NCBI GenBank assembly: GCA_022710935.1
Contig: JAKLFY010000018.1
Coordinates: 31,551 to 95,550 of the forward strand
Length of the DNA stretch: 64,000 nt
Direction: 5' to 3'
Source: Verrucomicrobiota bacterium
GTDB taxonomy: Bacteria; Verrucomicrobiota; Verrucomicrobiia; Limisphaerales; J093
Position numbers and translations under genes: made by a program. The notes under the pieces were generated by a model that was given only the letters and a program-made list of their open reading frames with translations, did not search any database and was not told the DNA's origin. Shown in pieces: positions 41,395-61,915 of the stretch (position 1 is the first letter of the stretch; each line of letters starts with the position of its first letter).

Positions 41395-41568
41395 ATTCTC
41401 CATCGACTCTCCTCCGCCCCTCCGAAATCCGTCGTTGGCTGCTCAGACTGTGGACGATTGTACCGTGAAGAGACGAGGCCCGCGGTGTCTGGCCTTGGCG
41501 TCCTGGCGCGGGACCACGGCCTGTTTGGCGCGGCCGCGCACGCCTGCCGACGGTCGGGCGACAGCCCA

Positions 41569-44500: not shown

Positions 44501-44832
44501 GCCAGGTCCAGGAAGGCGAACGTGTCATTGGTCGCCCACCACTCGTTGTATGCGTCCGGCTTGGGCTGCCGAAAGTCCAGCAACGCCAGGTCCTCCCAAC
44601 GCCTCAGATCAGGCGACCACTCGAGTTGGACGGTCTGGTTGGTGGCCATGTGCCCGGCGACACGCACCCAACCATTGGTCTCGGGCCGGATCTCGGACAG
44701 AAGGTTCGCCGCATGGCTGGCCGGCCAGGCCGACAGAATCGCGAGGGCAAGGGCCGTGACCAGGCGCCACTTACCACCCACGCACGGGGCTCGACTTTCG
44801 ATATCGGTCACGCGGTCTCCCCTGTCCTCCAT
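41569..44832 (-). CDS. Exported PEP/pyruvate-binding-domain protein
   Basis: About 1087 residues. The ATG at 44832 gives a signal peptide (LVTALALAILSAWPASHA); an in-frame start 41 codons further out was rejected. An N-terminal Verrucomicrobial beta-domain (VQLEWSPDLRRWEDLALLDF) is followed by a CotH-distinct middle part, and then an ATP-grasp-like PEP/pyruvate-binding domain: YFGGKAAHFGLLRRSIP, RIRFRSSSNAEDGETFSAAG, LYDSYSG, and LVLDFEYKKVEPGKLLVKQV with RPVPQ. In PEP synthase and PPDK that domain phosphorylates pyruvate; why an exported protein carries it is unknown. The C-terminal ~280 residues are of unknown type. Confidence 0.75.
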   Translation of the reverse strand: MEDRGDRVTDIESRAPCVGGKWRLVTALALAILSAWPASHAANLLSEIRPETNGWVRVAGHMATNQTVQLEWSPDLRRWEDLALLDFRQPKPDAYNEWWATNDTFAFLDLAAPTQPRRFYRFHTAPFEATNDWKNQVLSTDDAFAQSGLNSDLDAIRWVKFAVLFDDPYRVVYQDGRVYLLHHQFATNRLAPFRGLSADEFDRVSLFASNQQVLLGTVLFPPRPGIREYGIQFAGRDPYPRELVRTFFERVVSTVVAPADVTPFYLPAFEQSETALIDEAYFEAHGIRVSSVNRWVTSDQVYAAGWALGRLRVLPAAQIDAAYADGRLSPQDILVTDGVPAEVPFLSGILSTTPATPNSHVAILAQAYGIPFAFVAGAAAQARLAQLDGREVVLQATLRSGFAQVSVLEAEEALTPALREELLGLKRPPTPRIQPVSAYGAFIAPVDALRPDDIRYFGGKAAHFGLLRRSIPADSPEAIAFSFDLWTAFMSQVLPSGRRLADEIQMRLAAHTNYPPDIARVRQDLEAVRDLVTRTARFTPEQQTAITNALSHFDPLRRIRFRSSSNAEDGETFSAAGLYDSYSGCLADDLDDDTRGPCRCDPTEGNERGVFRAIQKVYACFYNDNAFLERLRHGLDERAVGMAVLVHYSTPDEYELANGVATVSIEAQLWGGARLKARLVTQKGAVSVTNPAGSALPEVVEVFDPDQIELLQPSGLVPLGSQVLDWPKEYETLAGLLFRVYTDYVDEAGGGAPTNLVLDFEYKKVEPGKLLVKQVRPVPQPPPLSSTRYLLGEAVTYGVYPREGSDILANHRLKCRLDLRTFGGRLTDTNLAEALYAHARLEFRQGSALHTIEGMPSEWPDATHAVSQDPRRGTIVEDGWTFGTGSNRWTFLLTSVIPSAASEATPFLAQAEIRKWLRVTYATPQPIFGTAGAPRTTATEEVQLVTLPGAATLSPDPPEAFEGPGNLHFQVRFLNPTNQSGPPLGVDQNFWGTYPASYSTWLESEIEGATLEPLALRDYYAQSAMPTHKYLWSYYLFEPALDPGLSPEQRAEWQAKDIQWIYVTRSLIGPRDVEVTFYGADGLPRGP

Positions 44833-45033
44833 TGTGAGCAAATCCGGACGCGGCGCGGCCACAATGGCGGAGCGTGAATAGATCGGGTCTCGGTTCTTCA
44901 CGGCCGTTGAGGATAAGTCTGTCGACACACTACGCGCCTGAACCCGCGGCAACAAGGCGGAATCTGATTGTCGAATGACATAATCAAGAACTGACCCCTA
45001 TTCGCCGCGCGGCACAGTTCGGGAGTGATCTGT
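44833..45033. other. Short gap before the RiPP locus
   Basis: About 200 bp between two same-strand genes. Contains AAGAACTGACCCCTATTCGC, a phrase that also appears loosely as AAGTTGACCCCTACC near 14072. No gene or clear terminator seen. Confidence 0.3.
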
Positions 45034-46710
45034 TCACGGTGCCCTGCTGTCGGCAGGTGCTGGATCAGCCGAGAGCACGGAACGGCACATGGCATCGACC
45101 AGCAGGGCCGTTGCCTCGCGGACGGCCCGGCGCGGGAACACGATCTCGCGGCCGCCGATGCGCACGGCGACCGGCGCGCAACGCTCGAACCTCCCGCGCT
45201 CCGCGGCGCGGGCGATGGCAACGGTCGCGCGATCGAGTTCGGCCAGGGTCGCGCGGACGCCCGCAGCGGCAGGGCCGGGTTGGTCCGAAGCCAGGAGATC
45301 GAGGCAACATTCGAGCACAGCCCGGGTCGAGGCCTGCTTGACTTCAGCCCCGAAGGCCAGAACCTCGCGTTCGTTGAACGGGGCACGAAACAGGCGCCGC
45401 AGCCGCTCCGAGGCCTTGTGAAGGCCGCGGGCCAACAGGCGGACCTGCGGGTAGAGCCGCCTCATGCGCCGATCCAGGAAGCGGTAGCCGAGGCGCCCCG
45501 CGGCAATCCCGCCGCTCGAGGAACCGAGCACGCCTTCCTTCCGCAAGCGTTCGTGAATCGCCGTCCCTTTGAAGGGGATCAGCCGAGTGAGGAACGAATT
45601 CTCGTGGAAGTGCTCGAGACCGATCCGTGCCACGGCTTCGAGGTTCTGGCGCAGCTCCTCGGGCGTCACGTACGGGTCGATGGGCATCACATAGAGCCGG
45701 TAGGGAATACCCAGGCGTTCGAGCGTCTTGACGGCAGCCCAGTTCTGGGCAACCGACACGCCTTTGCCATAGAGGGCCAGTTGCCGCGGCACCCAGGATT
45801 CGACGCCGACGTCCACGCATTCGAGACCCGCCTTCATCAAGTCCTGCAGCAGATCCGCATCCAGGCTGTCGGGCCGGCACACCACGGTAAAGCGGATGTC
45901 CAGGCGGCGCCCGAGGATCTCCGCCGCAATGGCCCGCGCGCGCCGACGCCCCCGCTCGCCGGGCCCGGCGAATTCATCGTCCATGAAGCGAATCCGATTG
46001 ACCCCGTGCGCGCGCACAAGGGCTTCGATCTCGTCCACGACACGGCGCGGGCTGAACGGACGCCAGCACGGGCCCTCGGAGAAGCGATAGAAGGCGCGGA
46101 TGCTGCAGAAGGCGCAGCGACCGAAACAGCCGCGGCTCGACACAACCGTGGCGGTGCGGGTGCGCCGAAGGGTGCGGGAGAAAGCCTCTCTGTGCGGATG
46201 CGGCAATTGGCTGAGGTCGGCAATCAGAGGGCGGCATGGGTTGGCGTGCGGCTGGCCGTCCCGTCGGCACGCGAGGTTGGGCAGCGCATCCCAGGCCTGC
46301 CCGGTCGAGACCGCGCGCGCCAGGTCGACCAGGGTGCCTTCGCCTTCGCCGCAGACCACCGAATCGACGCCCGGCCATTCGACCAGGAGATCGAAGGCGT
46401 TGAAGGTGGCATGGTGGCCCCCCAGTGTGACATGGCTGCGGCACCCGGCCCCTCGGAGATCTTCGATGATGCGGGCGGTTGCGTCCGCGTTGTTGTAGTA
46501 GAGGGTGAAACCGATGAGCGCGGGAGCCTCCTCTTGAATTCGACGCAGGAGGACGCGCCGGGGAATCGGCTCGTAATTCGCATCGAGCACGGTGACGCTA
46601 AAACCGTCCCGATCCAGGACCGCAGCGAGTGAAGCCAGCCCGAGATGTTCGGTGGCGAGGCGCGTTGCGGATCCGGCCCCACGGCAGTTGACGAGGACGA
46701 TGCGCGTCAT
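45034..46710 (-). CDS. Cobalamin-binding radical SAM enzyme, RiPP-maturase type (paralog 1)
   Basis: 558 residues; last gene of the row. The ATG at 46710 (MTRIVLVNCRG) overlaps the upstream stop (ATGA), which fixes the start although the frame runs on upstream. The N-terminal cobalamin-binding-like domain has EHLGLASLAAVLDRDG and VTLGGHHATFNAF; no canonical DxHxxG is present. Radical SAM cluster motif GCFGRCAFCSIRAFYR gives C195, C199 and C202. The SAM barrel continues with NRIRFMDDEFAGPGERGRRR and CVDVGVESWVPRQLALYGKG. The C-terminal helical domain ends with the shared signature F-x2-C-x5-R-x-G (FERCAPVAVRIGGREIVFP). By family this should be a C-methyltransferase or related modifier of the precursor at 54818. 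Confidence 0.85.
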   Translation of the reverse strand: MTRIVLVNCRGAGSATRLATEHLGLASLAAVLDRDGFSVTVLDANYEPIPRRVLLRRIQEEAPALIGFTLYYNNADATARIIEDLRGAGCRSHVTLGGHHATFNAFDLLVEWPGVDSVVCGEGEGTLVDLARAVSTGQAWDALPNLACRRDGQPHANPCRPLIADLSQLPHPHREAFSRTLRRTRTATVVSSRGCFGRCAFCSIRAFYRFSEGPCWRPFSPRRVVDEIEALVRAHGVNRIRFMDDEFAGPGERGRRRARAIAAEILGRRLDIRFTVVCRPDSLDADLLQDLMKAGLECVDVGVESWVPRQLALYGKGVSVAQNWAAVKTLERLGIPYRLYVMPIDPYVTPEELRQNLEAVARIGLEHFHENSFLTRLIPFKGTAIHERLRKEGVLGSSSGGIAAGRLGYRFLDRRMRRLYPQVRLLARGLHKASERLRRLFRAPFNEREVLAFGAEVKQASTRAVLECCLDLLASDQPGPAAAGVRATLAELDRATVAIARAAERGRFERCAPVAVRIGGREIVFPRRAVREATALLVDAMCRSVLSADPAPADSRAP

Positions 46711-48371
46711 GACGCCTTGGGGGATCGAATGCGCAGGGCGGCGTTCGCGAGCGTCCGCTGCAACGTGGCGAATGCCGGGGGAGGGAATCGGACCGTGCGG
46801 CGCCCGACGCGGACGCGAAACGGCTTGAAGGTCGCGAAGGACTGTTCTTGCCACGCCCGGCGCACGCGTCGCACCCCGGCGGCGAGCGCCCGATTGCCGC
46901 GGCGAAGCCGTTCGCGCGCGGCGCCGGGGCGTCCGCGCCGATAGGCGCAGAGAACCTGCCGGGCAGTTTCGAGGGCGGCCTCGTTGATCGCCGCCATCCA
47001 GTCCATCGCAAACCCCAGGACAGGTGGCGGCGCGGCAGCCAACGGCAGCAGCGCCTTGGCGGCATTCACCGTGCGCGCCAGGGACTGATCCAATCGCCGC
47101 AGCGCGCGATCCACAGCGGTCATCCGCGGATCGGCGAATCGGTAGGGGCGTCCGTGCTCGCAGGCACACACTCCGGCGCGGCGAGAGAGAAGGCCGTCCC
47201 GAGCAATCCGCTCCGCCAGCGGGGTGCCGGCGAACGCGGCGAGCCGGTTGAATAATGGGTGTGTGACGTGCCGTCCGCCGCGCCGCTGCATCCGCCGCAC
47301 GTTGTGTTCGAGTTCGGGCACCTGCACGTACGGATCGATGGGGATGAGGTACAGACGATAGTCGAGGCCGAGCCGTTCGAGCAGGTCGATCGCGCGATCG
47401 TTCTGTTCGGGCGTCAGAGCCTTGTCGTAAAGCTCGAGTTGCCGCGGCGTCCACGATTCCACGCCGAGGTCCACCCGGACAAGGCCTGCCTCCCGAAGCC
47501 GGACCAGGGTCGTCGCCTCGAGATCGTTCGCCCGGCAGGCGAGGGTCCACTGGATCCGCAGACCCGACCCCCGCACGAGATCGGCGATCGCGCCGGCCCG
47601 CCGTCGGCCCGTCAGCCCCGGTCCCATGAAATTGTCGTCCACGAAGATAATCTGCCGCGCGCCAAAGCGGCCCTGAAGATCCTCCATCTCGGCCACCACG
47701 CCCGCCGGAGAGCGCGGACGCCAGAGCGGGCCTGCGGCGAGCTGGGTGAACGCGCGGACACTGCAGAAGCCGCAGTGCGCGTAACAGCCGCGGCTCGAGA
47801 CCATTGTGGTGACGCCACTGTGTTCGACGGCGCTGCGATAGGGATCGCGGTTTGGCGGCGGCAGCCGATCCAGATCGGTGATCAACGGGCGGCAGGGATT
47901 CGCGTACGGCACGCCGGCGGAGTCGCGGCTGGCGAGGTTCGGGGTGTCCTGCCAGGGCCTCCTCTGGCGGAGACGCCCGGCCAGGTCGGCGAGCGCCAGC
48001 TCGCTTTCGCCCCGCAGGATCGAGTCGAGTTCCGGGTGGTTCGCGAGGATCTCGCGCCAATGGAAGGTGGCGTGATGCCCGCCCAGAGTGATGTGGGCCC
48101 GGCAGTCGCTGCGGCGCAAAGCTCGGATTGCGCGCAACGTGACCGTCACATTGTTGAGGTAGAGGCTGAACCCGACGAGTGTCGGACGCTCGAGGGCGAT
48201 CCTCTCGACAAGGGTGTCGACGTCGAGACCTTCGTGCGCGGCGTCGATGAAGCCGCAGCGATGTCCGGCGGCGGTCACGGAGGAGGTCAGATAAGCCAGG
48301 CCGAGGTGCTCGCGCTGAGCCGGGGCTGCGGCGTGCGGGGCGCCCACATAGGCGAGCATCACGTCCGTCAT
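46707..48371 (-). CDS. Cobalamin-binding radical SAM enzyme, RiPP-maturase type (paralog 2)
   Basis: 554 residues. The ATG at 48371 overlaps the preceding stop (ATGA). EHLGLAYLTSSVTAAGHRCG and ITLGGHHATFHWREIL mark the N-terminal domain. The cluster motif GCYAHCGFCSVRAF gives C196, C200 and C203. Barrel motifs: IIFVDDNFMGPGLTGRRRAG and VRVDLGVESWTPRQLELYDK. Shared C-terminal signature FATFKPFRVRVGRRTVRFP. It has a distinctive mid-region CACEHGRPYRF. Likely acts on the same precursor as its neighbours. Confidence 0.85.
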   Translation of the reverse strand: MTDVMLAYVGAPHAAAPAQREHLGLAYLTSSVTAAGHRCGFIDAAHEGLDVDTLVERIALERPTLVGFSLYLNNVTVTLRAIRALRRSDCRAHITLGGHHATFHWREILANHPELDSILRGESELALADLAGRLRQRRPWQDTPNLASRDSAGVPYANPCRPLITDLDRLPPPNRDPYRSAVEHSGVTTMVSSRGCYAHCGFCSVRAFTQLAAGPLWRPRSPAGVVAEMEDLQGRFGARQIIFVDDNFMGPGLTGRRRAGAIADLVRGSGLRIQWTLACRANDLEATTLVRLREAGLVRVDLGVESWTPRQLELYDKALTPEQNDRAIDLLERLGLDYRLYLIPIDPYVQVPELEHNVRRMQRRGGRHVTHPLFNRLAAFAGTPLAERIARDGLLSRRAGVCACEHGRPYRFADPRMTAVDRALRRLDQSLARTVNAAKALLPLAAAPPPVLGFAMDWMAAINEAALETARQVLCAYRRGRPGAARERLRRGNRALAAGVRRVRRAWQEQSFATFKPFRVRVGRRTVRFPPPAFATLQRTLANAALRIRSPKAS

Positions 48372-50014
48372 GGTCCGGTCTCCTCGATCTGGGCGACCAA
48401 CCGCTCGCCCATCGCGGCAATCGACGGCGGAGGAAAGCGCAGGACGTCGCGGCCAAAGCGCAGGCGCGTCGGGGCGAACTGGCGGAAGCGCCCAGACGCC
48501 TGAGCCGCCTCGATGGCTGCCATCTGGGCACCGAGCCGGGCGAAGCCGCGATCGAGCATCGGGCGCGGCGAGCGGCCGGACTGACACAACCGGAGGGACC
48601 GCTGGAACAAATCGAGCGCGGCGCGCTTGAGTGCGGCCTGGAGCTCGAAGGAATAGAGGGTCTCGGCGGGATTGCCCCGCTTGAGATCGACGAGGCTCTT
48701 GGCGCGCCGATCCAGCGCGGCGTAAGCCGGCAGACGTGCCTGCCAGGCCGCGAAGAGGCGCCGCACTTCCGGGCGCTGGAACCGGCACTCGGGATCCCGG
48801 CTGTACGCGCCCCCGGCGGCCGGGGATTGCAACAAGCCGTCCCGTTCGAGGGACTCGGCCAACGGCGTTCCCGGGAAGGCCTGGAGACGACTGAAGAGCC
48901 ACATGTCGAGCAGATGGCGGGGCCCCAGGCGTTGCCCCACCGTCACCGCGGCTTCGAGTTCCTCGAGCGCGATGTAGGGATCGAACAGAACCATGTAGAC
49001 ACGGTATTCGACACCGACCCGCTGGAGAGTCTCGATCGCCGCGTCGTTCTTCGCCGGGGTGGTCTTCTTGCGGTAGAGTTCGAGCTGGCGAGGCAGCCAC
49101 GATTCCGCCCCGATATCGACGCAAATCAAGCCGGCTTCTTTCAACCGCCGCAGTGTCGGTCCGTCGAGGTTGTCGGGGCGCGCCGAGATGATGAAGGTGA
49201 CGCCCAGGCGCCGTGCCTCGAGGAGAGATGCGATGGCCAGCGCCCGCTCCTTTCCCCGGCGTCCGGGACCCAGGAAGTCGTCGTCGACAAAGTTCACGTG
49301 TCGAACTCCATAGTCGCGTGCCAGCGCTTCGATCTCATCCACAACACTCGCAGGGCTTCGCGCGCGCCAACAGGGACCCGGCTGGAGGGCGAGGAAGGAC
49401 CGGATGCTACAAAAGCTGCAACCGCCGTAGCACCCTCGACTTGAACTCACACACGCCCAGCCATCCGCCCGGATGGCGTCGGCGTAGGCCCGCCTCGATG
49501 GCGACGGGAGACGGTCCAAATCGGCCAGTGGGCGGCACCGATTGAGACGCAGCCGCCCGTCGGGCTCACGGCACGCCACGTTGGGCACGTCGCGCCACTC
49601 GCGCCCCTCAACCAGCCGGTCCGCCAACTCGACCAGAGCCTCTTCACCCTCCCCGCGCACCACCGAATCGACCTCGGGCCAGTCGGCGAGCAGTTCGCGG
49701 CAGGTGAAGGTCGCGTGATGCCCGCCGAGAGTGATGTGGCCGCGCAGCCCGCCTCTCCGCAACCGCCGGATGAGCCGCAACGTCTCATCCGCGTTGTTAA
49801 AGAAAAGCGAGAAACCGAGGAGCAATGGCTGGCGCCCGCGCAGACAGCCTGCCAGCCAATTCGCCGTGCGTCCGTGGAAGCTGGCATCGAGAACCTCGAC
49901 GGTGTGCCCCCCGCGTTCGAGGGCCGCGGCCAGGAAGCCCAGCCCGAGGTTCTCCATGCGCTTGCGCCCCTCGTTGCGCCGCCCTCTGCAATCGGCCAGC
50001 AGCACCTCGCCCAT
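48368..50014 (-). CDS. Cobalamin-binding radical SAM enzyme, RiPP-maturase type (paralog 3)
   Basis: 548 residues. ATG at 50014, 2 bp after the upstream stop. Its own stop overlaps the next ATG. N-terminal domain: ENLGLGFLAAALERGGHTVE, ITLGGHHATFTCRELL. Cluster motif GCYGGCSFCSIRSF gives C195, C199 and C202. Barrel: VNFVDDDFLGPGRRGKERAL and CVDIGAESWLPRQLELYRKK (Ala replaces the Val of the relatives in the GVES motif). C-terminal signature FRQFAPTRLRFGRDVLRFP. Confidence 0.85.
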   Translation of the reverse strand: MGEVLLADCRGRRNEGRKRMENLGLGFLAAALERGGHTVEVLDASFHGRTANWLAGCLRGRQPLLLGFSLFFNNADETLRLIRRLRRGGLRGHITLGGHHATFTCRELLADWPEVDSVVRGEGEEALVELADRLVEGREWRDVPNVACREPDGRLRLNRCRPLADLDRLPSPSRRAYADAIRADGWACVSSSRGCYGGCSFCSIRSFLALQPGPCWRARSPASVVDEIEALARDYGVRHVNFVDDDFLGPGRRGKERALAIASLLEARRLGVTFIISARPDNLDGPTLRRLKEAGLICVDIGAESWLPRQLELYRKKTTPAKNDAAIETLQRVGVEYRVYMVLFDPYIALEELEAAVTVGQRLGPRHLLDMWLFSRLQAFPGTPLAESLERDGLLQSPAAGGAYSRDPECRFQRPEVRRLFAAWQARLPAYAALDRRAKSLVDLKRGNPAETLYSFELQAALKRAALDLFQRSLRLCQSGRSPRPMLDRGFARLGAQMAAIEAAQASGRFRQFAPTRLRFGRDVLRFPPPSIAAMGERLVAQIEETGP

Positions 50015-50016
50015 GG

Positions 50017-51708
50017 TCAGACCTCCGCGCCGGCGCGCGCCCCGGCAGGCGCAGCAGGTGCGGCCTCCAGCCCCATGACCTGACTCACTTCCGCGACCAG
50101 GCGACGCACCGTCTGGGGCGGATACCGCACGGCCGAACTGCCGATGCGAAACGTCATGGTGGCGAATCGGGCAAAATCACCGCGCCGCTCGCGCGCATGG
50201 ACGCGCGCGACCTGTCGACGGATCCGGGCCAGGCGCGGGGCAAGACGGAGAACCGTCGGCGCTCGTCCGTCCCGCGCCGCGCGCTGGACAACGGTCTTGA
50301 ACAAGGCGAAGACGGCGCGGTAGACCGCCTGGCTGGCGGCATCGGCGAACTGCCGCTCGCAGGTGTTGCGGTTTGGGCCCGCCAGACGGGCGCGGAGCCG
50401 CTCGACCAGACGCGCCTGAGCCAGATAGAGCCGTTCCCCTTGGCGATGCACGTCCGCCATCGCCGGGTGAACGAATCGGTAGGGCAGCGGTCCCTCGAAG
50501 GAGGCCCTTCCCCGAGGCGCGGTCAGCAGGCCAGCCTTCCGCAACTGCTGCTCGATCGGGCTGCCCTTGAACACAGTGAGCCGATTGAACGCCGCCGACT
50601 CGGGGAAATGATCGAGCCCGACGCGTTCGAGTTCCTCGAGGTTGGTCAGGAGTTCGGCGGGCGTGGCGTAGGGATTGGACGGGATAAGATAGAAACGGTT
50701 GGCCAGCCCCAACTCCTTCAGAAGCGCAACGCCCCGGCGGTTTTGTTCCACATGCAGGCCCTTGCGATAAAGCCGCAGATGGCTGGGCACCCAGGATTCC
50801 ACCCCAATGTCCACGCCCCGAAGCCCGGCCTCATGCAGAAACCGCAACAGATCCGGATCGAGATCGTTCGCGCGGCAGATGAAAAAGAAGGTGATCGCCA
50901 GCTTCCGACGAAGGATCTCCCGGCCCAGTTCCCACGCCCGAGCCCGCCCCGCCCGCCCGTATCCAATCAGGTTGTCGTCGGCGAACTCGATGTGCCGCAC
51001 GCCGTGGCGCCGCACGAGCTCTTCGATCTCGTCAGCCACCCCAGCAGCGGAACGCGCCCGCCAGGCCGGACCGGGTGAGAGGCGGTGAAAGGCCCGGATG
51101 CTGCAGAAACTGCATGCCCCATAACAGCCGCGACTGGACAGGATCGTCGCCGTGCCCTCCCGCCGCATGTGTTCGAGGTAGGGACGCCGGTCCGGAAACG
51201 GCAGCGCATCGAGGTCGGACACCAGCGGCGGGCAGGCGTTGCTCAACACGTGGTCGCGCCCCCGCACGCAGAGCCCGGGCACGCCCTTCCAGTCCTGGCC
51301 AGAGGCCAGGCACCGCGCCAATGAAACGAGCGGCTCCTCGCCTTCACCGAGCACGACCGAGTCGACCTCCGGCCAGGCTTCCAGAATCTCGCGGCTGTTA
51401 AAGGTCGCATGGTGGCCGCCCAACGTGATGTGCCGCCGATCGCCGGCGGCCCGCAGGGCGCGCACGATGCGCTTGGTTTCCTCGACGTTGTTTACGAAGA
51501 GACTGAACCCCGCGATGCGGGAAGGAAGCGCGTCGAGCCGCTCGACCACCGCCTCGCTCGGAAGGTCGTGGAAGTGGGCATCGACGATCTCCGCGCGCCG
51601 GCCCGCCGCACCAAGGGTCGAAGACAAGTAGCCGAGACCCAGATGCTCGATCTTGCCCGGCTTGCCAAACTTCCGGCAGCGCGCGTTGACCAGGATCACG
51701 TCGTGCAT
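50017..51708 (-). CDS. Cobalamin-binding radical SAM enzyme, RiPP-maturase type (paralog 4)
   Basis: 563 residues from the ATG at 51708 (MHDVILVNARC); the longer open frame upstream crosses a dispersed repeat and was rejected. N-terminal domain: EHLGLGYLSSTLGAAGRRAE, a VDAHFHDLP stretch with DxH (possible cobalamin contact), ITLGGHHATFNSREIL. Cluster motif GCYGACSFCSIRAF gives C195, C199 and C202. Barrel: IEFADDNLIGYGRAGRARAW and GVDIGVESWVPSHLRLYRKG. C-terminal signature FARFATMTFRIGSSAVRYP, then an Ala-rich tail. The 88-bp gap to paralog 5 is the only sizeable gap in the row. Confidence 0.85.
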   Translation of the reverse strand: MHDVILVNARCRKFGKPGKIEHLGLGYLSSTLGAAGRRAEIVDAHFHDLPSEAVVERLDALPSRIAGFSLFVNNVEETKRIVRALRAAGDRRHITLGGHHATFNSREILEAWPEVDSVVLGEGEEPLVSLARCLASGQDWKGVPGLCVRGRDHVLSNACPPLVSDLDALPFPDRRPYLEHMRREGTATILSSRGCYGACSFCSIRAFHRLSPGPAWRARSAAGVADEIEELVRRHGVRHIEFADDNLIGYGRAGRARAWELGREILRRKLAITFFFICRANDLDPDLLRFLHEAGLRGVDIGVESWVPSHLRLYRKGLHVEQNRRGVALLKELGLANRFYLIPSNPYATPAELLTNLEELERVGLDHFPESAAFNRLTVFKGSPIEQQLRKAGLLTAPRGRASFEGPLPYRFVHPAMADVHRQGERLYLAQARLVERLRARLAGPNRNTCERQFADAASQAVYRAVFALFKTVVQRAARDGRAPTVLRLAPRLARIRRQVARVHARERRGDFARFATMTFRIGSSAVRYPPQTVRRLVAEVSQVMGLEAAPAAPAGARAGAEV

Positions 51709-51743
51709 GAACCGCGCACGCGCCGCCGAGCCCCGCAGCGGTC

Positions 51744-51793
51744 CGCATTCTGGAGTTTTCGGATTCGCCGTGGTCACAAGTCGACAAAGATGC
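51744..51793. repeat. Dispersed repeat C, copy 1 (inside the radical SAM row)
   Basis: GCATTCTGGAGTTTTCGGAT then TCGCCGTGGTCACAAGT, closely matching 57945-57996 (GCATTTTGGAGTCTTCAGCT ...). It fills most of the gap between paralogs 4 and 5. Confidence 0.6.
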
Positions 51794-51796
51794 AGG

Positions 51797-53545
51797 CTAG
51801 CAGCCTCCGGCGGCCAAGGGACGGACAACGGCCTCCTGCGTCGAGGGCTTCGCGACGCGCCCGCCACGGCCGCGGCCGCGGCCGAGCCCTGCCGTTTTGC
51901 GGACGGGCTTCGAGGCGGGCTGCGACGGCGCAAGGGCCTCGACCAGCACCGCCAGTTCCCGAGGCGGAAACGAGACGATCTCCGTCCCAAATCGGAAACT
52001 CCGGGTGGCGAATCGGCGGAATGTTCCGGCGCGCTTCGCCCTGCGGATCTGGTCGATGCCATGCCGAAGCTCGGCGAAGCGGTCCTGGACCGCCTGCCAT
52101 GCCTTCTTCACCTCGCCGTCCTTGGCGCCCCGCAGGAGCAGCCGCACCGAGTCGAACTTGTGACGCTTGATGATTTCATCAATCTGTTGGACGAAGCGTT
52201 GGACGAGACGGTTGTCGCTGGCCAGTTCCTCGAGGGGCCCCTCGCGAAGGCCCACGTAGTGATGATGCAGTTCGTAGAGGCGCGGAAGCAGCGGCCCGAG
52301 GCGCGAGTCGCGCACCACGTAGGGCTGCCCCCAGGCGAAGTCCTCGGTCGACCCGTCCGGCCGTGTCCACAGCACCCCCTCGCGCCGCAAACGCTCGATC
52401 AGGGTCGTCCCCTCCAACACCACCAGCCAGGCGGGGATCTGTCCTTCGATGAAGTGGCTCAGCCCAATTCGCTCCATCCATTCCAGGCTCTCAATCAGCT
52501 CCTCGACAGTGGCGTAGGGATCAAGCGGGATGTAGTAAAGGCGATAGTCCAGACCCAGACGTTCGAGAGTCTCGATCGCCCGCAGATTCTGTTCTACCGT
52601 CGTGCCCTTCCGGTAGAGCTTCAACTGGCGGGGAATCATCGATTCGATGCCCGTTCCCACGGCACGGAGCCCTGCGGTCTGCAGGAAAGCGAATGTCTCC
52701 TCGTGCACGTCGGTGGGACGGCAATCCAGATCGAACGTCAGATCGAGCTTGCGCCGCATCAGCTCCCGTCCGAACGCCCTGGCGCGCTCCCGTCCGATCT
52801 CGCCGCGCCCCATGAAATTGTCGTCCACAAAATGGACGTGCCGCGCCCCCTGCCCGGCAAGCCACTCCATCTCGTCCACGATGTGGCGCGGACTGCGCGC
52901 GCGCCAGCCCGTTCCCAGCCCGAGGCGGTAAAAGGCGCTCACGCTGCAGAAACTGCAACACGCATAGCAGCCCCGGCTCGATGCAACGTCCGCCACACCC
53001 TCTTCCCGCAGCCGCCGCCGGTACACCGACCGGTCAGGAAACGGCAGGGCATCGAGGTCGGGTAGCAATGCCCGCGCCGCCGTGTGCCGGACGCCCCCGG
53101 CCTCATCCCGACAGGCGAGGCCTGGCGTGTCCCGCCACTCCTGCCGCCGCCGGACTCGCCGCACCAACTCGGTGAGCGTCAGCTCTCCCTCGCCGCGCAC
53201 CACGGCGTCCACCGCCGGTTCCGCCAGCAGGGAGGCGGGACGGAAGCTGGCATGATGGCCTCCCATGCAGATGTGGCGCACCGAAGGCAAGGCACGGACA
53301 ATCCGGGCAGTGGCGAGGGCTTCAGCCTGATTGCTGAAAAAGATGGTGAACCCGACGACCGTGGGCCGGAGCTCGCCCAGGCGCCGGGCAATGTCCTGCG
53401 CGTCCAGGCGATCGAAGTGGCCGTCAACGATCTCGGTGTCGATTCCTTCGCGGCGGAGGTAGCTCGAGAGGCAGCCCAACCCCAGGTGCTCCCGCCGCTC
53501 CGGGACGATCCGCCCGCGACAATTGACCAGAACGACTTCAGGCAT
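51797..53545 (-). CDS. Cobalamin-binding radical SAM enzyme, RiPP-maturase type (paralog 5) with RG-rich tail
   Basis: 582 residues from the ATG at 53545 (MPEVVLVNCRGRI), 13 bp after the U32-like gene's stop. N-terminal domain: EHLGLGCLSSYLRREGIDTE, VDGHFDRLD (DxH), CMGGHHASFRPASLL (the most divergent GGHHA segment). Cluster motif GCYACCSFCSVSAF gives C193, C197 and C200 with an extra C196. Barrel: VHFVDDNFMGRGEIGRERAR and VGTGIESMIPRQLKLYRKGT, where GxES is kept but the following W is M. C-terminal signature FRRFATRSFRFGTEIVSFP, followed by a unique ~45-residue tail containing GLGRGRGRGGRVAKPS and ending LAAGGC. Confidence 0.85.
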   Translation of the reverse strand: MPEVVLVNCRGRIVPERREHLGLGCLSSYLRREGIDTEIVDGHFDRLDAQDIARRLGELRPTVVGFTIFFSNQAEALATARIVRALPSVRHICMGGHHASFRPASLLAEPAVDAVVRGEGELTLTELVRRVRRRQEWRDTPGLACRDEAGGVRHTAARALLPDLDALPFPDRSVYRRRLREEGVADVASSRGCYACCSFCSVSAFYRLGLGTGWRARSPRHIVDEMEWLAGQGARHVHFVDDNFMGRGEIGRERARAFGRELMRRKLDLTFDLDCRPTDVHEETFAFLQTAGLRAVGTGIESMIPRQLKLYRKGTTVEQNLRAIETLERLGLDYRLYYIPLDPYATVEELIESLEWMERIGLSHFIEGQIPAWLVVLEGTTLIERLRREGVLWTRPDGSTEDFAWGQPYVVRDSRLGPLLPRLYELHHHYVGLREGPLEELASDNRLVQRFVQQIDEIIKRHKFDSVRLLLRGAKDGEVKKAWQAVQDRFAELRHGIDQIRRAKRAGTFRRFATRSFRFGTEIVSFPPRELAVLVEALAPSQPASKPVRKTAGLGRGRGRGGRVAKPSTQEAVVRPLAAGGC

Positions 53546-53558
53546 ACGCTGGCATGAA

Positions 53559-54821
53559 CTACCCCGTCCGGGCTCGAACCGATGCGCGCCTGCTTTGAAG
53601 TTTGGTCGCCACGCCTGCCGCGAGGGCGTCGATTCGCGCCTGGTAATCAACCGCCGCTGCCGCCATGGTCCGGGCGCTGGCGACCACCTGGCGCGCCACA
53701 TCGCCCTCCTCCTCCTCCGTCACCACACGCTCGGCCCAGTCGTGGCAATAGCGGCATGGACCGCATCCTTCCTGACACCGATATGGCGTGTGCAAAAAGT
53801 GGTCGAGGAATCCGGTCATCGCGCGCGCCTTGACTCGAAATCCGGTCCGCCCGCCCGCGAACGCAGTCAACGGCACAGCGCCCGCGGGGGATTCTCCCCG
53901 AAGATATGTTTCCACCGTCTTGAGGAGGTTCTCCGGCCGCGCGCCACGCCCCTGAATCTTGAAATGATCGATGCCCGTCTGCGTGTAAAGATCGAGATCC
54001 TCGGGCCGAATCCATGCCGACATCAAAGCGCGGACTTTGTCTTCATGATTCTGAATCATGCACCGCGCGCCGACGTGGGACAGGGCCGAGCCGGCGTCGA
54101 GCCCTGGTTCCCGCGGACGCGAGAAATGGGCGTTCAGGTTGTAGTGGTGAGCCTTGAGCGGGCACCCCAACAGACAGAGGCTGTTGACGATCAATCCCAG
54201 TTCGAGCCCGGTGGATGCCCGGAGAGCGCGTAGCAGCGGGAAGTTGCGCGTCACGTCGATGTCGAGGGTCACCCGGTCCACCCCCAGACTGGCGAAGAAC
54301 TCGAGCTTGCGTACGGAATCGACATAGCAAATGACCGACGCCCCCACCTTCAGTCCGGGCTCGCACGCACGCGCAAACTCCATCACGAGCGGGGACGTCA
54401 CCGTGACCCGATCCGCACCGGCGTCCGCCAGGCGCCCCAGCAGGGCGCGCAACTCCCGCTGTCCGCTGTAGGTGCCTTCGTCCCCGCCCAGACAGGCCGC
54501 GTTCAACAGGTAGCTGAAAGAGAAGCCCCGACGGCGCGCCGCGCGAATCCATCGGAAGACCGCGGCATCGCCCACTCGAGGCAGAATCATTGCCGCACGT
54601 CCGGATCCGAACCGGCTGCTGGCATGCGAGCCGTAGACCTCGACCACCCGGGCCCGGTCGCCGTACCTCTCGTTCAGCCGCTCATAGCCGTCGAGCACGC
54701 CGCTGTCCCAGACGCAGGGCGCGCTGAAGCGACGCGCTCCAGTCGCGCCCGACGCCCGAGCTCCGTCTGCCCCCGGCCTGACACTCACACGTCCATCAAC
54801 GGCATCCACCCGCCAACTCAC
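53559..54821 (-). CDS. U32-peptidase-family protein in the RiPP operon
   Basis: 420 residues; the GTG at 54821 overlaps the precursor stop (GTGA), so the two are translationally coupled. The barrel resembles peptidase U32 (collagenase-like/UbiU-TrhP) proteins: SAPCVWDSGVLDGYERLNER, YGDRARVVEVYGS, LADAGADRVTVTSPLVMEFA, GLKVGASVICYVDSV and IVNSLCLLGCPLKAHHYNLN. Ten cysteines: C36, C110, C153, C165, C216, C220, C254 and a C-terminal CQEGCGPCRYC with C349, C353, C356 and C359 (eleven if C36 is counted with the rest). U32 relatives hold a 4Fe-4S cluster bound by four Cys; C216/C220/C254 could contribute to one. Some U32 proteins modify tRNA, rRNA or quinones, so protease activity is not assured. 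It may process or further modify the peptide. Confidence 0.75.
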   Translation of the reverse strand: MSWRVDAVDGRVSVRPGADGARASGATGARRFSAPCVWDSGVLDGYERLNERYGDRARVVEVYGSHASSRFGSGRAAMILPRVGDAAVFRWIRAARRRGFSFSYLLNAACLGGDEGTYSGQRELRALLGRLADAGADRVTVTSPLVMEFARACEPGLKVGASVICYVDSVRKLEFFASLGVDRVTLDIDVTRNFPLLRALRASTGLELGLIVNSLCLLGCPLKAHHYNLNAHFSRPREPGLDAGSALSHVGARCMIQNHEDKVRALMSAWIRPEDLDLYTQTGIDHFKIQGRGARPENLLKTVETYLRGESPAGAVPLTAFAGGRTGFRVKARAMTGFLDHFLHTPYRCQEGCGPCRYCHDWAERVVTEEEEGDVARQVVASARTMAAAAVDYQARIDALAAGVATKLQSRRASVRARTG

Positions 54822-55150
54822 GAGAACGCAGCGACGATCGCCACGTCGGCGATCGGGATCAGCACCGCCACCGCGGTCGTCCCCTGCTTCTTGAGTTCTT
54901 CGGCCAGGTTGTCGATCTTGCCTTGGATTTCCTGAATCTGCCGCGCCTGGATCGGCCCGAACCGAATGCCCACCTGCGCCGCGGCCGCCTGAGGATCCTT
55001 GCTCAGCAGCGCGCGGAAGGTCTCGTCGGTCAAGGCCTTTCCCATCAACATCTGCATCTTCGTCGGTGTCGGCCTGCTCAGGCGAGGCTTGGCTTTGGTG
55101 GGAGACTTCGCGCCGGCTTTTCGTGTGGGTCGCCTACTCTTTGGACTCAT
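54818..55150 (-). CDS. Putative RiPP precursor peptide
   Basis: 110 residues; ATG at 55150 with a good Shine-Dalgarno (GGAG, 6 nt spacing). Three parts: residues 1-31 are strongly basic and Pro/Lys/Arg-rich (SPKSRRPTRKAGAKSPTKAK); 32-89 are helical, with ALTDETFRALLSKDPQAAAA followed by QVGIRFGP, the FRxxLLxDPxxAxxxxGI pattern of NHLP/Franean1-type RiPP leaders; 90-110 form a hydrophobic Ala/Val/Ile-rich segment, GTTAVAVLIPIADVAIVAAF then S, as a core. Its gene overlaps the U32-like gene and is followed by five, preceded by one, cobalamin radical SAM genes. Beta-branched residues in the core are typical C-methylation sites. Processing site (near Q89-G90) and product are inferred. Confidence 0.75.
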   Translation of the reverse strand: MSPKSRRPTRKAGAKSPTKAKPRLSRPTPTKMQMLMGKALTDETFRALLSKDPQAAAAQVGIRFGPIQARQIQEIQGKIDNLAEELKKQGTTAVAVLIPIADVAIVAAFS

Positions 55151-55170
55151 GCTTCACTCCATTCGTTCTG
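55142..55170 (-). promoter_or_regulatory. Ribosome-binding site of the precursor gene
   Basis: On the minus strand GGAGTGAAGCATG puts GGAG six bases before the ATG at 55150. Internal ATGs at codons 32, 34 and 36 have no such site, which supports the long basic N-terminus being translated. The promoter itself was not identified. Confidence 0.55.
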
Positions 55171-55351
55171 GTGTTTCACCGCACTCGCCTCGGCCCGCGG
55201 ATGCCCGGTACACATCGTCCGGGAATGACTCACCGCGTGCCAGAAGCGAAAACCGCCCCGTCGTTTTGGCCGATCCATACTTTGGGAAATGTCCGCGGAC
55301 GCTAGACCGGCATCGAACCAATGCCAAGGAAATTCTCCGGTGCGGCGCGCC

Positions 55352-55492
55352 CGCCAGTGCGTCTGAAGGTTGTCGGTGGGAATCGAGTATGCGCCGCGTG
55401 GGGGCGCGCGGCCTGCACCGGCAATCTCCATCCGTTGTAGGCCCGGTGCCTTCACCGGGCGACAGAACACCGACAGCAACCCGATCCACCGC
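55352..55492. repeat. Family A REPIN-like element, full copy 3
   Basis: GTGCGTCTGAAGGTTGTCGG at the left, CGCCGCGTGGGGGCGCGCGG hairpin, GTAGGCCCGGTGCCTTCACC hairpin, and ACACCGACAGCAACCCGATC at the right. Fills most of the gap between paralog 6 and the precursor gene, where it could attenuate or stabilise transcripts. Confidence 0.75.
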
Positions 55493-55542
55493 GCGTCAGC
55501 GGCGCACCCGCGAGGGGTCGCCAGCAATCCCACGCTTCGCTC

Positions 55543-57597
55543 TCATTCCGTCCCGCGTCCGGCCCTCTTCGGTCTGGCTCCGGGCCGGACTCTCTCGCCG
55601 GTTGCAGGGGATGCGTGCGGCCCTTTGGCCGCGCCAGCCAATGTTCGCAGATAGCGGCGGACCAGGCGGCGGACACCCGGGCCAGGGTAGACGAGCCGCA
55701 TGCGCCCCATCCGGATGGTGAAGAAGACGCAGTTCGCGAAGTCGCCTCGGACAGCCGCCTGCTCGATCCTGGCCACTCCGGCGCGCAATGCGCTCAGTTC
55801 GCGGCGGACCACGGCTCGAGCGCGCTCGAAGCGACGCGCCTTGCACAAGGGCACCACGCGGTCGCACAGGTGCAGCGCGCTGTCCCGCAACGCGCAACGC
55901 ACCCGGCGCGCGAACAGCCGATCCCCGCGGCCTTCGAGCCTCGGACGCAGGAGAGCCTCCGCGCGATCCGCAAGCGCCTGGTAGCCCTCAACCACCCCCG
56001 ACCACACCGGACGAATGGCCTCGCGCGCATCGAGCGGGAGGAAACTGCCTTCGCCGTGATCCGACTCGACAGCAGCCTCCAACACCAGCGCGCGCCCGTA
56101 GACCAGCCGGTCCAGATCGTCCTCGAGCATGCGGTCGAAATCATCGAGGGCGGCCGCCCCGGGAGCGGGTTGGCAGGCGCGGACAAGCTCTCGGAACAGG
56201 CGAAATCCGCTGACTGCCAGGGCCTGTTGCCAGCGGCGATTCAGCAGTTCCTCGGGCCCGCCGCGCAGCCAGGTGCGGGGCGAGCGGCCGACGCTCACGC
56301 GCAGCGCGATGAACTCGCCGAACAGATCCCGCCAGCGCCTGTACACCTCGCGCACGCGCACGTCTTGAAACTCGAATGCAGCCGGACCGAGATACTCGGG
56401 CTCCCGCGAATGCCGGCAGGTCAGGCCGGCGGCGTCGAACTGCGCCTTGATGGGCGCGCCGCGGAACGCCATGACCTGGCTGAACGTGAAACCCTCCGCC
56501 GCATGCTCAATCCCCGCCCGCTCGATCTGGTCGAGATTCTCGTTCAGTTCCTCGATCGTGAGATGCGGATCCGCCGGGATGAGAAAATAGAGGTAGTCCA
56601 GACCGAGCCGCCGCACGACCTCCACGGCCCGCAGATTCTGCTCGCGCGTCACGCCCTTGCCGTAGAGGGCGAGTTGGCGGGGAACCCAGGACTCGATGCC
56701 CAGGCTGACGTGGAACAAACCCGCCCGCTGCAGCGCGCCCAGCACCGATTCGTCGACGCTGTCGGGACGGCAGACGATATTGAACTGCAGACCGAGACCC
56801 CGCCGTCTCAATTCCTCGCCGATGCCCAGCGCATGGGCCCGACCCTGGGCGCCCGGACCGATGAATTCGTCGTCCACGAAGTTGATGCGCCGGACGCCAT
56901 GGGCGCGGGCAAGGCCTTCGATTTCGTCCACCACACTCGAACAGCTCCGGGGCCGCCAAATGCGCCCTCGAGCAAGCCGATAAAAGGCGCGGATGCTGCA
57001 GAAGCTGCAACGGCCGTAACAGCCGCGCGTCGAAATCACAGTCGCAATCCCGTGCTCGCGCAAAAACTCGACGTAAGGATCGCGCACAGGAAAAGGCAGT
57101 TCATCCAGATCGACGATCAATGGCCGGCACGGATTGAGAATGATCGCCCCGGCCCTGCGGCAGGCCACGTTCGCGATCCCTCGCCACTCCGACCCCGTCG
57201 CCACCGCAGCCGCCAGGTCGCACAGCGCCCCTTCCCCCTCGCCGCGCACGACGGAATCGATCTCCGGATGGCGCGCAAGAAGATCCTCCGCGTGGAACGT
57301 CGCGTGGTGCCCTCCGAGTGTGATGTGCCCTCGATACCCCTCGAGCCGAAGCTTCCGAATCGCCGACAGAGTCGGGCGGATGTTGTTGTAATAAACCGTG
57401 AAGCCGACCAGACACGACGCCTCGGACGTCAGGTGTTCGAGCGTCTCTCGCAGACGCAGGCGATGAAAACTGGCGTCCACGATCCGGCCTGCAAAGCCGC
57501 GCCTCGCGAGTGTCGCCGCCAGGTAGCCCAGACCAAGATGCTCGACCTTGCTCACCAGGCCGTCGGCTGCGACGTTGGCCAATATTACGCGAAACAT
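55543..57597 (-). CDS. Cobalamin-binding radical SAM enzyme, RiPP-maturase type (paralog 6, upstream of precursor)
   Basis: 684 residues from the ATG at 57597 (MFRVILANVAADG); the longest of the six. N-terminal domain: EHLGLGYLAATLARRGFAGR, ITLGGHHATFHAEDLL. Cluster motif GCYGRCSFCSIRAF gives C193, C197 and C200. Barrel: INFVDDEFIGPGAQGRAHAL and HVSLGIESWVPRQLALYGKG. A ~120-residue helical insertion follows the barrel (about 420-600), then the shared signature FANCVFFTIRMGRMRLVYP and a basic tail (RVRPGARPKRAGRG). Its separation from the row by 392 bp and a family-A element leaves open whether it is co-transcribed with the precursor. Confidence 0.85.
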   Translation of the reverse strand: MFRVILANVAADGLVSKVEHLGLGYLAATLARRGFAGRIVDASFHRLRLRETLEHLTSEASCLVGFTVYYNNIRPTLSAIRKLRLEGYRGHITLGGHHATFHAEDLLARHPEIDSVVRGEGEGALCDLAAAVATGSEWRGIANVACRRAGAIILNPCRPLIVDLDELPFPVRDPYVEFLREHGIATVISTRGCYGRCSFCSIRAFYRLARGRIWRPRSCSSVVDEIEGLARAHGVRRINFVDDEFIGPGAQGRAHALGIGEELRRRGLGLQFNIVCRPDSVDESVLGALQRAGLFHVSLGIESWVPRQLALYGKGVTREQNLRAVEVVRRLGLDYLYFLIPADPHLTIEELNENLDQIERAGIEHAAEGFTFSQVMAFRGAPIKAQFDAAGLTCRHSREPEYLGPAAFEFQDVRVREVYRRWRDLFGEFIALRVSVGRSPRTWLRGGPEELLNRRWQQALAVSGFRLFRELVRACQPAPGAAALDDFDRMLEDDLDRLVYGRALVLEAAVESDHGEGSFLPLDAREAIRPVWSGVVEGYQALADRAEALLRPRLEGRGDRLFARRVRCALRDSALHLCDRVVPLCKARRFERARAVVRRELSALRAGVARIEQAAVRGDFANCVFFTIRMGRMRLVYPGPGVRRLVRRYLRTLAGAAKGPHASPATGERVRPGARPKRAGRGTE

Positions 57598-57714
57598 GGC
57601 CGCTCCCGCAGGGACCCGCAGGCCCGCGCCCGAGTGATCCCCCGCGAATCGGCCTGAAGCGTAGAACCCGCCGACGCCATGGATCAAGTGAATAGTCCGC
57701 CCACACCCGTTCCT

Positions 57715-57848
57715 CGGTGCATCGGGTTGTTGGCGGTGTTCTGTCGCCCGGTGAGGGCACCGGGCCTACAACGGATGGCGATTGTCGATGTAGGCCGCGT
57801 GCCCCCACGCGGCGCATGCTCGATTCCCACCGACAACCTCCAGATGCA
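57715..57848. repeat. Family A REPIN-like element, full copy 4
   Basis: GGTGCATCGGGTTGTTGGCG at the left and CCGACAACCTCCAGATGCAC at the right are inverted ends; between them are the CGCCCGGTGAGGGCACCGGG and GTAGGCCGCGTGCCCCCACG hairpins. Lies just upstream of paralog 6, in inverted orientation to copies 1 and 3. Confidence 0.75.
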
Positions 57849-57944
57849 CCAGCCGTTCCTCACCCTGTCGACTGTCTGGCGTCACGAACGGACTCGCTTC
57901 AACTCTCGGCAACAGGCGAATCGGGCAATTCTGGCCCGCGGCGG

Positions 57945-57996
57945 CGCGCATTTTGGAGTCTTCAGCTTCGCCGCGGTCACGACTGCATGAAGCATG
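57945..57996. repeat. Dispersed repeat C, copy 2
   Basis: GCGCATTTTGGAGTCTTCAG, then CTTCGCCGCGGTCACGACTG. Pairs with 51744-51793; the two copies flank most of the radical SAM locus in the same orientation. Confidence 0.6.
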
Positions 57997-58053
57997 CGGG
58001 GCAGCACACGCCATCTGTAGCCGCAATGATCGAGACGACCGGAGAGGGAAAGA

Positions 58054-58131
58054 TGGTCGGGGCGGTGAGATTTGAACTCACGACCTCTTGTACCCGAAAC
58101 AAGCGCGCTAGCCAGGCTACGCTACGCCCCG
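58054..58131 (-). tRNA. tRNA-Pro (CGG anticodon)
   Basis: 78 nt with encoded CCA. Acceptor CGGGGCG pairs with CGCCCCG, giving the C1-G72 pair and A73 that mark bacterial tRNA-Pro. Anticodon stem CTTGT/ACAAG encloses TTCGGGT, anticodon CGG with G37. T loop TTCAAAT in the GTGAG/CTCAC stem. Confidence 0.96.
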
Positions 58132-58166
58132 AACCAATGGAGGGGATTGTGCCGGCTTCCGGGTGA

Positions 58167-61664: not shown

Positions 61665-61767
61665 TGGTGTTCCTCAGCCAAAGGACGGGGGCAGCACTTA
61701 ATCTGATTTCCTGTTCCCCTCCCTTTTCGGGACCCGCTTTTCGCTCGCGAGGTGATGCGCGGGGCAG

Positions 61768-61899: not shown

Positions 61900-61915
61900 G
61901 GGGTGGGGAGGGATG

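What the first reader, a model, noticed from the sequence alone, without database searches (positions are those of the whole stretch)
45034..57597. Candidate new RiPP locus: one precursor, one U32-family protein, six cobalamin radical SAM enzymes
Seen: eight minus-strand genes with a peptide gene (54818-55150) amid six enzymes that each have CxxxCxxC near residue 195-202 and a GGHHA[TS]F cobalamin-domain segment. Known: B12-binding radical SAM enzymes such as those of the polytheonamide pathway methylate unactivated carbons of RiPP cores. Inferred: the product is a short, hydrophobic, multiply C-methylated peptide. Six such enzymes for one short core, joined to a U32-family protein and with no recognisable exporter or nitrile-hydratase-type partner, is a combination I do not recognise as described.
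Basis: partly seen in the sequence, partly recalled or inferred. Interest (0 to 1): 0.95.

Follow-up and report, generated by a model that had tools for sequence, protein, structure and literature searches.

The report
Six-enzyme B12 radical peptide factory
An uncultured Verrucomicrobiota bacterium carries a small peptide gene of a known natural-product precursor family amid six different vitamin-B12 radical enzymes and one U32-family protein, a set that likely builds a heavily modified peptide (predicted to be methylated at several positions and perhaps hydroxylated without oxygen).

Summary
Eight minus-strand genes (45034-57597) encode six B12-binding radical SAM enzymes, a U32-family protein and a 110-residue peptide that passes the cut-off of the Os1348/NHLP precursor family. 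The complete set, peptide in the same place, recurs in the one other genome of the genus that is held. Scans of 97 relatives and 320 genomes of the order (4-14 candidates scored per genome) found no third locus. This suggests separate tasks. The U32 protein is probably not a protease: it has the U32 barrel and conserved cysteines, and its subfamily is linked to chorismate mutase twice, by a fusion in a related cluster and by a chorismate mutase-DAHP synthase gene directly upstream in 6 of 50 loci. Known U32 hydroxylation factors need prephenate, so oxygen-free peptide hydroxylation is my best guess, although the catalytic Glu and cysteine spacing of known U32 oxidases are not kept. No product, methylation or hydroxylation is shown here. 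Verdict: a real, unusual new variant of a RiPP cluster.

The parts
55543..57597 (-). rS1: B12-binding radical SAM enzyme, 684 aa, longest of the six (extra helical stretch of about 110 residues); first gene of the cluster
   Evidence: model mean pLDDT 85.9, best PDB matches OxsB and TsrM; orthologues in other contigs
54818..55150 (-). RiPP precursor, 110 aa, Os1348/NHLP clan leader; near-invariant hydrophobic C-terminus VAVLIPIADVAIV[AS]AF[SA]
   Evidence: NF038399 44.4 bits, cut-off 40; 5 precursors aligned, one of them a shorter form; dN/dS 0.385
55058..55150 (-). basic N-terminal tail of the precursor (residues 1-31), varying mostly between residues 13 and 30; absent from the shorter homologue P0037
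54821..54883 (-). predicted core region of the precursor (residues 90-110, GTTAVAVLIPIADVAIVAAFS); cleavage site unknown, inference
53559..54821 (-). U32-family protein, 420 aa, GTG start overlapping the precursor stop codon; C110, C216, C220, C254 and C349, C353, C356, C359
51797..53545 (-). rS2: B12-binding radical SAM enzyme, 582 aa
50017..51708 (-). rS3: B12-binding radical SAM enzyme, 563 aa
48368..50014 (-). rS4: B12-binding radical SAM enzyme, 548 aa
46707..48371 (-). rS5: B12-binding radical SAM enzyme, 554 aa; overlaps rS4 by 4 nt
45034..46710 (-). rS6: B12-binding radical SAM enzyme, 558 aa; overlaps rS5 by 4 nt; its orthologue P0048 in another contig carries a C-terminal chorismate mutase domain

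Best explanation
This is a cluster of eight minus-strand genes in which a 110-residue NHLP-clan peptide is predicted to be the substrate of six different B12-dependent radical SAM enzymes, each likely modifying (most probably C-methylating) its own position in the conserved hydrophobic C-terminus, while the U32 protein would act not as a peptidase but as an iron-sulfur enzyme that likely hydroxylates the peptide without O2, using prephenate. Shown: the gene set, its conservation and order in a second species, the precursor family match, the six separate orthologous groups, the predicted U32 fold and conserved cysteines, and the chorismate mutase links in related loci. Inferred: that the peptide is the substrate, that each enzyme has its own site, that the reaction is methylation, that the U32 protein binds Fe-S clusters, and that it hydroxylates with prephenate. 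How the leader is removed and the product exported is not explained by any gene in the cluster. Sub-confidences: RiPP locus 0.92; division of labour among six enzymes 0.75; methylation as main reaction 0.7; U32 as Fe-S enzyme rather than protease 0.75; prephenate-dependent hydroxylase 0.45. The overall figure is for the joint claim and is therefore held under its weakest part.
Against: None of the six enzymes passes a methyltransferase model; the best-scoring NCBIfam model for each is BchE, an oxidative cyclase (107.8-141.6 bits, cut-off 481), and the closest solved structure is OxsB, recalled as a ring-contracting enzyme. In the U32 protein, the Glu essential in TrhP/RlhA is Gly (G or A in 9 of 9 sequences of A2, window included), and the CX6CX15CX3C spacing is absent; that column is Glu in 21 of 50 more distant loci. 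The fourth C-terminal cysteine (C349) is kept in 32 of 33 close sequences but in only 3 of 50 loci in that alignment column, so a second cluster is less sure than the first. P0048's mutase keeps 5 of 7 PheA positions (recalled as catalytic); Asp48 and Gln88 positions are Ala and Leu. In 44 of 50 U32 loci, some on short contigs, no mutase gene was detected next to U32, nor is there one in the window. The mutase-U32 pairs are in distant U32 relatives where no B12 radical SAM match was found. Precursors on the other contigs could not be read, and contig co-residence is inferred from equal length.
Confidence: 0.42

Rival explanations
1. The U32 protein is a peptidase that removes the leader or trims the modified peptide; all chemistry is done by the six radical SAM enzymes.
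For: The Pfam name is Peptidase_U32 and one source of the 33 relatives collagenase-like PrtC protease. The gene overlaps the precursor stop. No other protease is in the cluster.
Against: Seven to eight conserved cysteines suit Fe-S clusters better than a protease. A chorismate mutase fusion and neighbours have no place in proteolysis. The characterised bacterial members in the passages read are hydroxylation factors.
Confidence: 0.2
2. The six B12 radical SAM enzymes do not methylate but perform other radical chemistry (oxidation or ring formation like BchE, rearrangement like OxsB, cross-links).
For: BchE is the best-scoring NCBIfam model in 6 of 6 enzymes; OxsB is the top structural and profile hit.
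Against: All scores are far below cut-offs, so the models only show the shared B12/radical SAM scaffold. Described RiPP enzymes of this architecture (Bot/Bmb, Poy) are C-methyltransferases (PMC11285071 passages). An aliphatic core offers few sites for cross-links (inference).
Confidence: 0.2
3. The operon makes a non-peptide product (lipid or glycan) and the small NHLP-clan protein is an accessory, not the substrate.
For: Some distant U32 relatives sit with B12 radical SAM genes in Omnitrophota loci; in the three whose ORFs I printed (L025, L026, L041) there are glycosyltransferase-like and epimerase-like genes by eye and no obvious precursor. One plasmid relative of the enzymes lies in a sugar-acid cluster.
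Against: Those Omnitrophota enzymes are only 22-30% identical to ours. Here the small gene is kept with a constant C-terminus, matches a precursor model and overlaps the U32 start. Precursors of a similar Pseudomonas type are modified RiPP substrates (PMC12636437 passages).
Confidence: 0.07
4. The six enzymes are recent tandem copies that raise dosage or are redundant.
For: They lie in tandem; the other five are 37-43% identical to rS1.
Against: Each is closer to its own orthologue in other lineages than to the other five; the label 'window' needs 6 changes, 6 of them forced by well-supported branches, in both trees that test it.
Confidence: 0.03

Closest known systems
Os1348 / PosA / PflA clusters of Pseudomonas (NHLP-clan precursors)
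   Same: The precursor here passes the NCBIfam model named after Os1348; those clusters have in-cluster modifying enzymes (PMC7726476 passages), and in the similar pfl and pos clusters the precursors are hydroxylated (PMC12636437 passages)
   Different: Those clusters use an acetyltransferase, HEXXH and dehydrogenase- or MNIO/nitroreductase-type enzymes and have transporter genes. No B12 radical SAM and no U32 is named in the passages read; the PosA/PflA C-termini have a Gln run ending in ARMD.
Bottromycin B12 radical SAM methyltransferases (BotRMT1-3 / BmbB, F, J)
   Same: Several B12 radical SAM enzymes, each for its own residue(s) of one peptide (PMC11285071 passages)
   Different: Three enzymes, not six; C-terminal follower; NHLP leader and U32 not mentioned in the passages read
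Polytheonamide PoyB/PoyC
   Same: B12 radical SAM C-methylation of a RiPP, with the two enzymes working on separate regions (PMC11285071 passages)
   Different: Two enzymes for many sites; PoyC has Cx7Cx2C; the six here fall below the cut-off of TIGR03975
U32 oxidases TrhP, RlhA, UbiU/UbiV
   Same: U32 domain, conserved C254 column, K-I-x-G-R segment (UbiV lacks it), link to chorismate/prephenate
   Different: Different cysteine spacing, extra C-terminal CxxxCxxCxxC, essential Glu replaced; the substrates described are RNA bases or ubiquinone precursors
Three-enzyme B12 radical SAM cluster on Burkholderia stagnalis plas2
   Same: Three radical SAM genes beside a 55-aa peptide gene; one of the three was checked and has the B12-binding domain
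   Different: The three enzymes form their own group; TldD pair and M16 peptidase present, no U32 listed; peptide has no Pfam match

Membership tests
RiPP biosynthetic locus | Short precursor gene with recognisable leader beside modifying enzymes | tested here: met
   NF038399 44.4 bits, cut-off 40; gene overlaps U32 start
RiPP biosynthetic locus | Precursor conserved with the enzymes in homologous loci | tested here: met
   1 of 1 readable homologous locus keeps it in place; the other contigs are not readable
RiPP biosynthetic locus | Enzymes act on the precursor | not testable with these tools
   needs co-expression and MS
Os1348-type NHLP clan precursor | Score over the NF038399 cut-off | tested here: met
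   44.4 bits; 45.3 bits
Franean1_4349 precursor (PF14407) | Score over the Pfam gathering cut-off | tested here: not met
   20.7 bits, cut-off 48; homologue P0036 is listed with PF14407
NHLP leader TIGR03793 | Score over cut-off | tested here: not met
   16 bits, cut-off 50.9
RiPP maturation radical SAM C-methyltransferase (TIGR03975) | Score over cut-off 281.85 | tested here: not met
   68.8-117.1 bits in 6 of 6
B12-dependent (class B) radical SAM enzymes | N-terminal B12-binding domain plus radical SAM domain with CxxxCxxC | tested here: met
   6 of 6
B12-dependent (class B) radical SAM enzymes | Methyl transfer activity | not testable with these tools
   biochemistry needed
BchE | Score over cut-off 481.35 | tested here: not met
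   107.8-141.6 bits
RiPP radical SAM ApyD (NF050148) | Score over cut-off 750 | tested here: not met
   72.8-107.3 bits in 6 of 6
Peptidase family U32 (PF01136) | Score over gathering cut-off and U32 barrel fold | tested here: met
U32 oxidases (TrhP/RlhA/UbiU type) | CX6CX15CX3C cysteine motif | tested here: not met
   C216-x3-C220, C254 and a C-terminal CxxxCxxCxxC instead
U32 oxidases (TrhP/RlhA/UbiU type) | Essential Glu (TrhP E162) | tested here: not met
   Gly209 in the window; G or A in 9 of 9 sequences of A2; E in 21 of 50 genome loci
U32 oxidases (TrhP/RlhA/UbiU type) | Dependence on prephenate | tested here: inconclusive
   only indirect: mutase fusion and 6 of 50 adjacent CM-DAHP synthase genes
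Proteusin | NHLP leader with proteusin-type enzyme set (epimerase, LanM or YcaO etc., recalled) | tested here: inconclusive
   leader clan partly met; every gene of the cluster is a B12 radical SAM, U32 or precursor, but flanks were only partly scanned

The most novel reading that the evidence does not exclude
An entirely anaerobic peptide-tailoring line: six B12 radical SAM enzymes, each dedicated to its own site in a 17-residue aliphatic core, together with the first U32-family peptide hydroxylase, an Fe-S enzyme that takes its oxygen atom from prephenate. One sister lineage has even fused the prephenate-making chorismate mutase to one of the six enzymes.
Probability: 0.32. Interest if true: 0.9.

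Novelty: new variant of a known kind. Interest (0 to 1): 0.74.

Why it matters
If right, it gives RiPP chemists a set of six site-dedicated B12 radical SAM enzymes acting on one short peptide, twice the three described for bottromycin. That makes the question of how such enzymes choose their residue directly testable with natural orthologues. It would also extend U32 enzymes from RNA and quinones to peptides. The cluster is specific enough (one fusion, one neighbour gene, defined cysteines) to test the open question of how prephenate takes part in O2-free hydroxylation.
Full report
What is there. Eight genes on the minus strand, transcribed rS1 - precursor - U32 - rS2 - rS3 - rS4 - rS5 - rS6, fill 57597 to 45034. 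The precursor gene overlaps the U32 GTG start by 4 nt, rS4/rS5 and rS5/rS6 overlap by 4 nt, and rS3/rS4 are 2 nt apart, so the genes look like one translationally coupled unit (coordinates; the coupling is inference). All six enzymes carry a B12-binding and a radical SAM domain, with CxxxCxxC starting at residue 193-196 and GGHHA[TS]F at 95 or 97. The other five are 37-43% identical to rS1. rS1 has an extra helical stretch of about 110 residues (alignment; model mean pLDDT 85.9).

The peptide. The 110-residue protein scores 44.4 bits against NF038399, the Os1348 family of the NHLP clan, over the curated cut-off of 40. It stays under the cut-offs of PF14407, TIGR03793 and TIGR04509. It is the only NF038399 match at E 0.001 in the window's 7.5 Mb genome. 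Among 97 genomes (own, one of the same genus, others from family and order), 7 match at E 0.001 but only 2 pass the cut-off, the window's and its genus mate. These are also the only two with the U32 protein at E 1e-15 and the only two with six enzyme matches of over 700 bits; in four further genomes, and as a seventh match in these two, the best at E 1e-50 is 177-183 bits (up to 14 candidates scored per genome). Of 5 precursors aligned, one of them a shorter form, residues 94-106 (VAVLIPIADVAIV) are identical in all, while the basic N-terminal tail varies. The protein search found 4 precursor homologues in all, 79-96% identical, so precursors of more distant clusters were not reached.

Conservation. 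The sister species (Verrucomicrobia bacterium ADurb.Bin006, MWFF01000099, taxonomy) keeps all eight genes in order. Protein identities over aligned codons are 84.5-91.2%, with dN/dS of 0.157-0.289 for the enzymes and U32 and 0.385 for the precursor. DNA collinearity runs from 41497 to 58188 of the window, interrupted on both sides of rS1 by stretches that hold a dispersed repeat and are missing in the sister species. Further scans: 320 genomes of the order gave 3 with a match at E 1e-90, the two species and a lone 333-bit relative in G655 (4 candidates scored per genome). 387 genomes of the phylum gave 8 U32 matches at E 1e-40, the window's at 663 bits and seven at 163-176 (the sister species is not among the matches of this draw). 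The named genome collection holds 50 loci with U32 relatives, the sister species at 89% identity and the other 49 at 23-39%.

Six enzymes, six lineages. A profile search returned 112 proteins at E 1e-60 (capped at 7999 candidates). A tree of 118 rows put all six window enzymes in a 37-row clade (SH-aLRT 99). A careful tree of 39 rows resolves six groups, one per window enzyme (UFBoot/SH-aLRT): rS1 100/99 (7 rows), rS2 100/100 (2), rS3 100/100 (5), rS4 100/100 (5), rS5 100/99 (9), rS6 99/96 (3; a further row, P0065, joins at 84/62). Five enzymes listed with one contig of length 12450 fall in groups 5, 4, 1, 2 and 3, and U32 P0005 is listed with the same length. Four enzymes with contig length 22327 fall in groups 1, 6, 3 and 5, and U32 P0006 has that length too. 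Each of these eleven proteins is listed with a single contig and source 'lgn' (which I take to be assemblies of public reads, no organism named), so I take equal length as the same contig; this is inference. The six-fold set is therefore older than the split of these lineages, and each member was retained at about 50% identity, which points to separate tasks rather than dosage.

What the enzymes do. No listed NCBIfam cut-off is passed by any of them (25 of 27 rows shown for rS1, all rows for the rest). BchE scores best (107.8-141.6 of 481), the RiPP enzyme ApyD is second best for rS4 and rS5 (100.4 and 107.3 of 750), and TIGR03975, the RiPP C-methyltransferase model, scores 68.8-117.1 of 282. 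The best solved relatives by profile and fold are OxsB and TsrM. Methylation is inferred from the architecture and from bottromycin and polytheonamide, where B12 radical SAM enzymes methylate separate residues or regions (PMC11285071, passages). Outside the clade, the plasmid-borne relatives that I opened (3 of 23 records) lie in mixed surroundings. A Burkholderia stagnalis plasmid has three radical SAM genes with a 55-aa peptide gene, an M16 peptidase and a TldD pair; a Rhizobium plasmid has a 44-aa ORF and an MFS transporter; a Solidesulfovibrio plasmid has a sugar-acid cluster.

Link to prephenate. In a related cluster the rS6 orthologue P0048 ends in a type II chorismate mutase domain (PF01817, 63.1 bits, cut-off 27; 1 of 10 proteins scanned; also the only one of 112 with that domain in the listing). 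It keeps 5 of 7 positions that I recall as catalytic in PheA; the Asp48 and Gln88 positions are Ala and Leu, positions where TyrA differs from PheA too. In 6 of the 50 U32 loci (L030, L049, L051, L052, L056, L064; MAGs labelled Myxococcota, Myxococcales or Deltaproteobacteria) a match to CM-DAHP synthase ends 18-135 bp before the U32 match; 4 of the 6 proteins were checked by Pfam and all 4 carry both domains. A seventh locus has a DAHP synthase match 2.3 kb away, and in the other 43 none was found at E 1e-8, some of them on short contigs. These six are related to each other, so they are not six independent events. [quoted passage not shown] Two different kinds of mutase linkage in one U32 subfamily make a prephenate-linked reaction the best single guess for the U32 protein here. 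The sister species comes from an anaerobic-digester-type MAG name (ADurb; recalled meaning), which would suit O2-free hydroxylation.

What is missing. No exporter or leader protease is among the eight genes. Of flanking genes I scanned six by Pfam (PPDK_N protein; GH28, glucuronyl esterase, LTD/CotH, PQQ-repeat and carbon-nitrogen hydrolase proteins); none is an obvious exporter, but not every flanking ORF was scanned.

Comparison and novelty. The precursor belongs to a known clan: Os1348 (PMC7726476, passages) and, from a similar cluster type, PosA/PflA, on which HEXXH and MNIO enzymes act (PMC12636437, passages). Multi-enzyme B12 radical SAM tailoring is known from bottromycin (three) and polytheonamide (two). 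New in combination are six separate enzyme lineages for one NHLP-clan precursor and a U32 protein as partner. The held library gave no paper for cobalamin-dependent radical SAM with U32 and RiPP, two for peptidase U32 with RiPP that look unrelated by title, none recognisable as such a set from the titles and abstract beginnings listed, and none for prephenate with RiPP and radical SAM. Most subscription papers are outside that library, so absence from print is not proven. I rate it a new variant of a known kind.

Noticed in passing
55357-55491 and 57715-57849: A 135-nt dispersed repeat in inverted copies flanks rS1; 41 matches in the genome with 40 of 228 first-look candidates scored. Both stretches are absent from the sister species, and the last 23 or so codons of rS1 lie in the inserted stretch.
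   Followed up: partly
41569-44955: Gene directly downstream on the same strand: PPDK_N (over cut-off) and PEP-utilizers (below cut-off) behind what looks by eye like a signal peptide, an odd place for an ATP-dependent phosphotransferase fold; syntenic in the sister species.
   Followed up: no
58054-58131: tRNA-Pro borders the cluster and the same stretch is kept next to it in the sister species; a possible insertion site for the cluster.
   Followed up: no
L030, L049, L051, L052, L056, L064: CM-DAHP synthase gene directly upstream of a U32 gene of the same cysteine pattern in Myxococcota and deltaproteobacterial MAGs: a candidate prephenate-linked U32 operon of unknown product.
   Followed up: partly
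L025, L026, L027, L031, L032, L034, L037, L041 (Omnitrophota), L059 (Nitrospinota): Arrays mixing several U32 genes and/or B12-type radical SAM genes, in L025, L026 and L041 with glycosyltransferase-like, epimerase-like and aminotransferase-like genes by eye.
   Followed up: partly
L106 6672-13464 (Burkholderia stagnalis plas2): Three radical SAM genes around a 55-aa peptide gene with M16 peptidase and, further upstream, a TldD pair: a candidate RiPP cluster.
   Followed up: partly
L105 9090-11059 (G655): Lone B12-type radical SAM gene in the same order with a 67-aa ORF just upstream on the same strand.
   Followed up: partly
60159-63091: GH28-like and glucuronyl-esterase-like genes near the cluster, typical polysaccharide degradation genes.
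   Followed up: no
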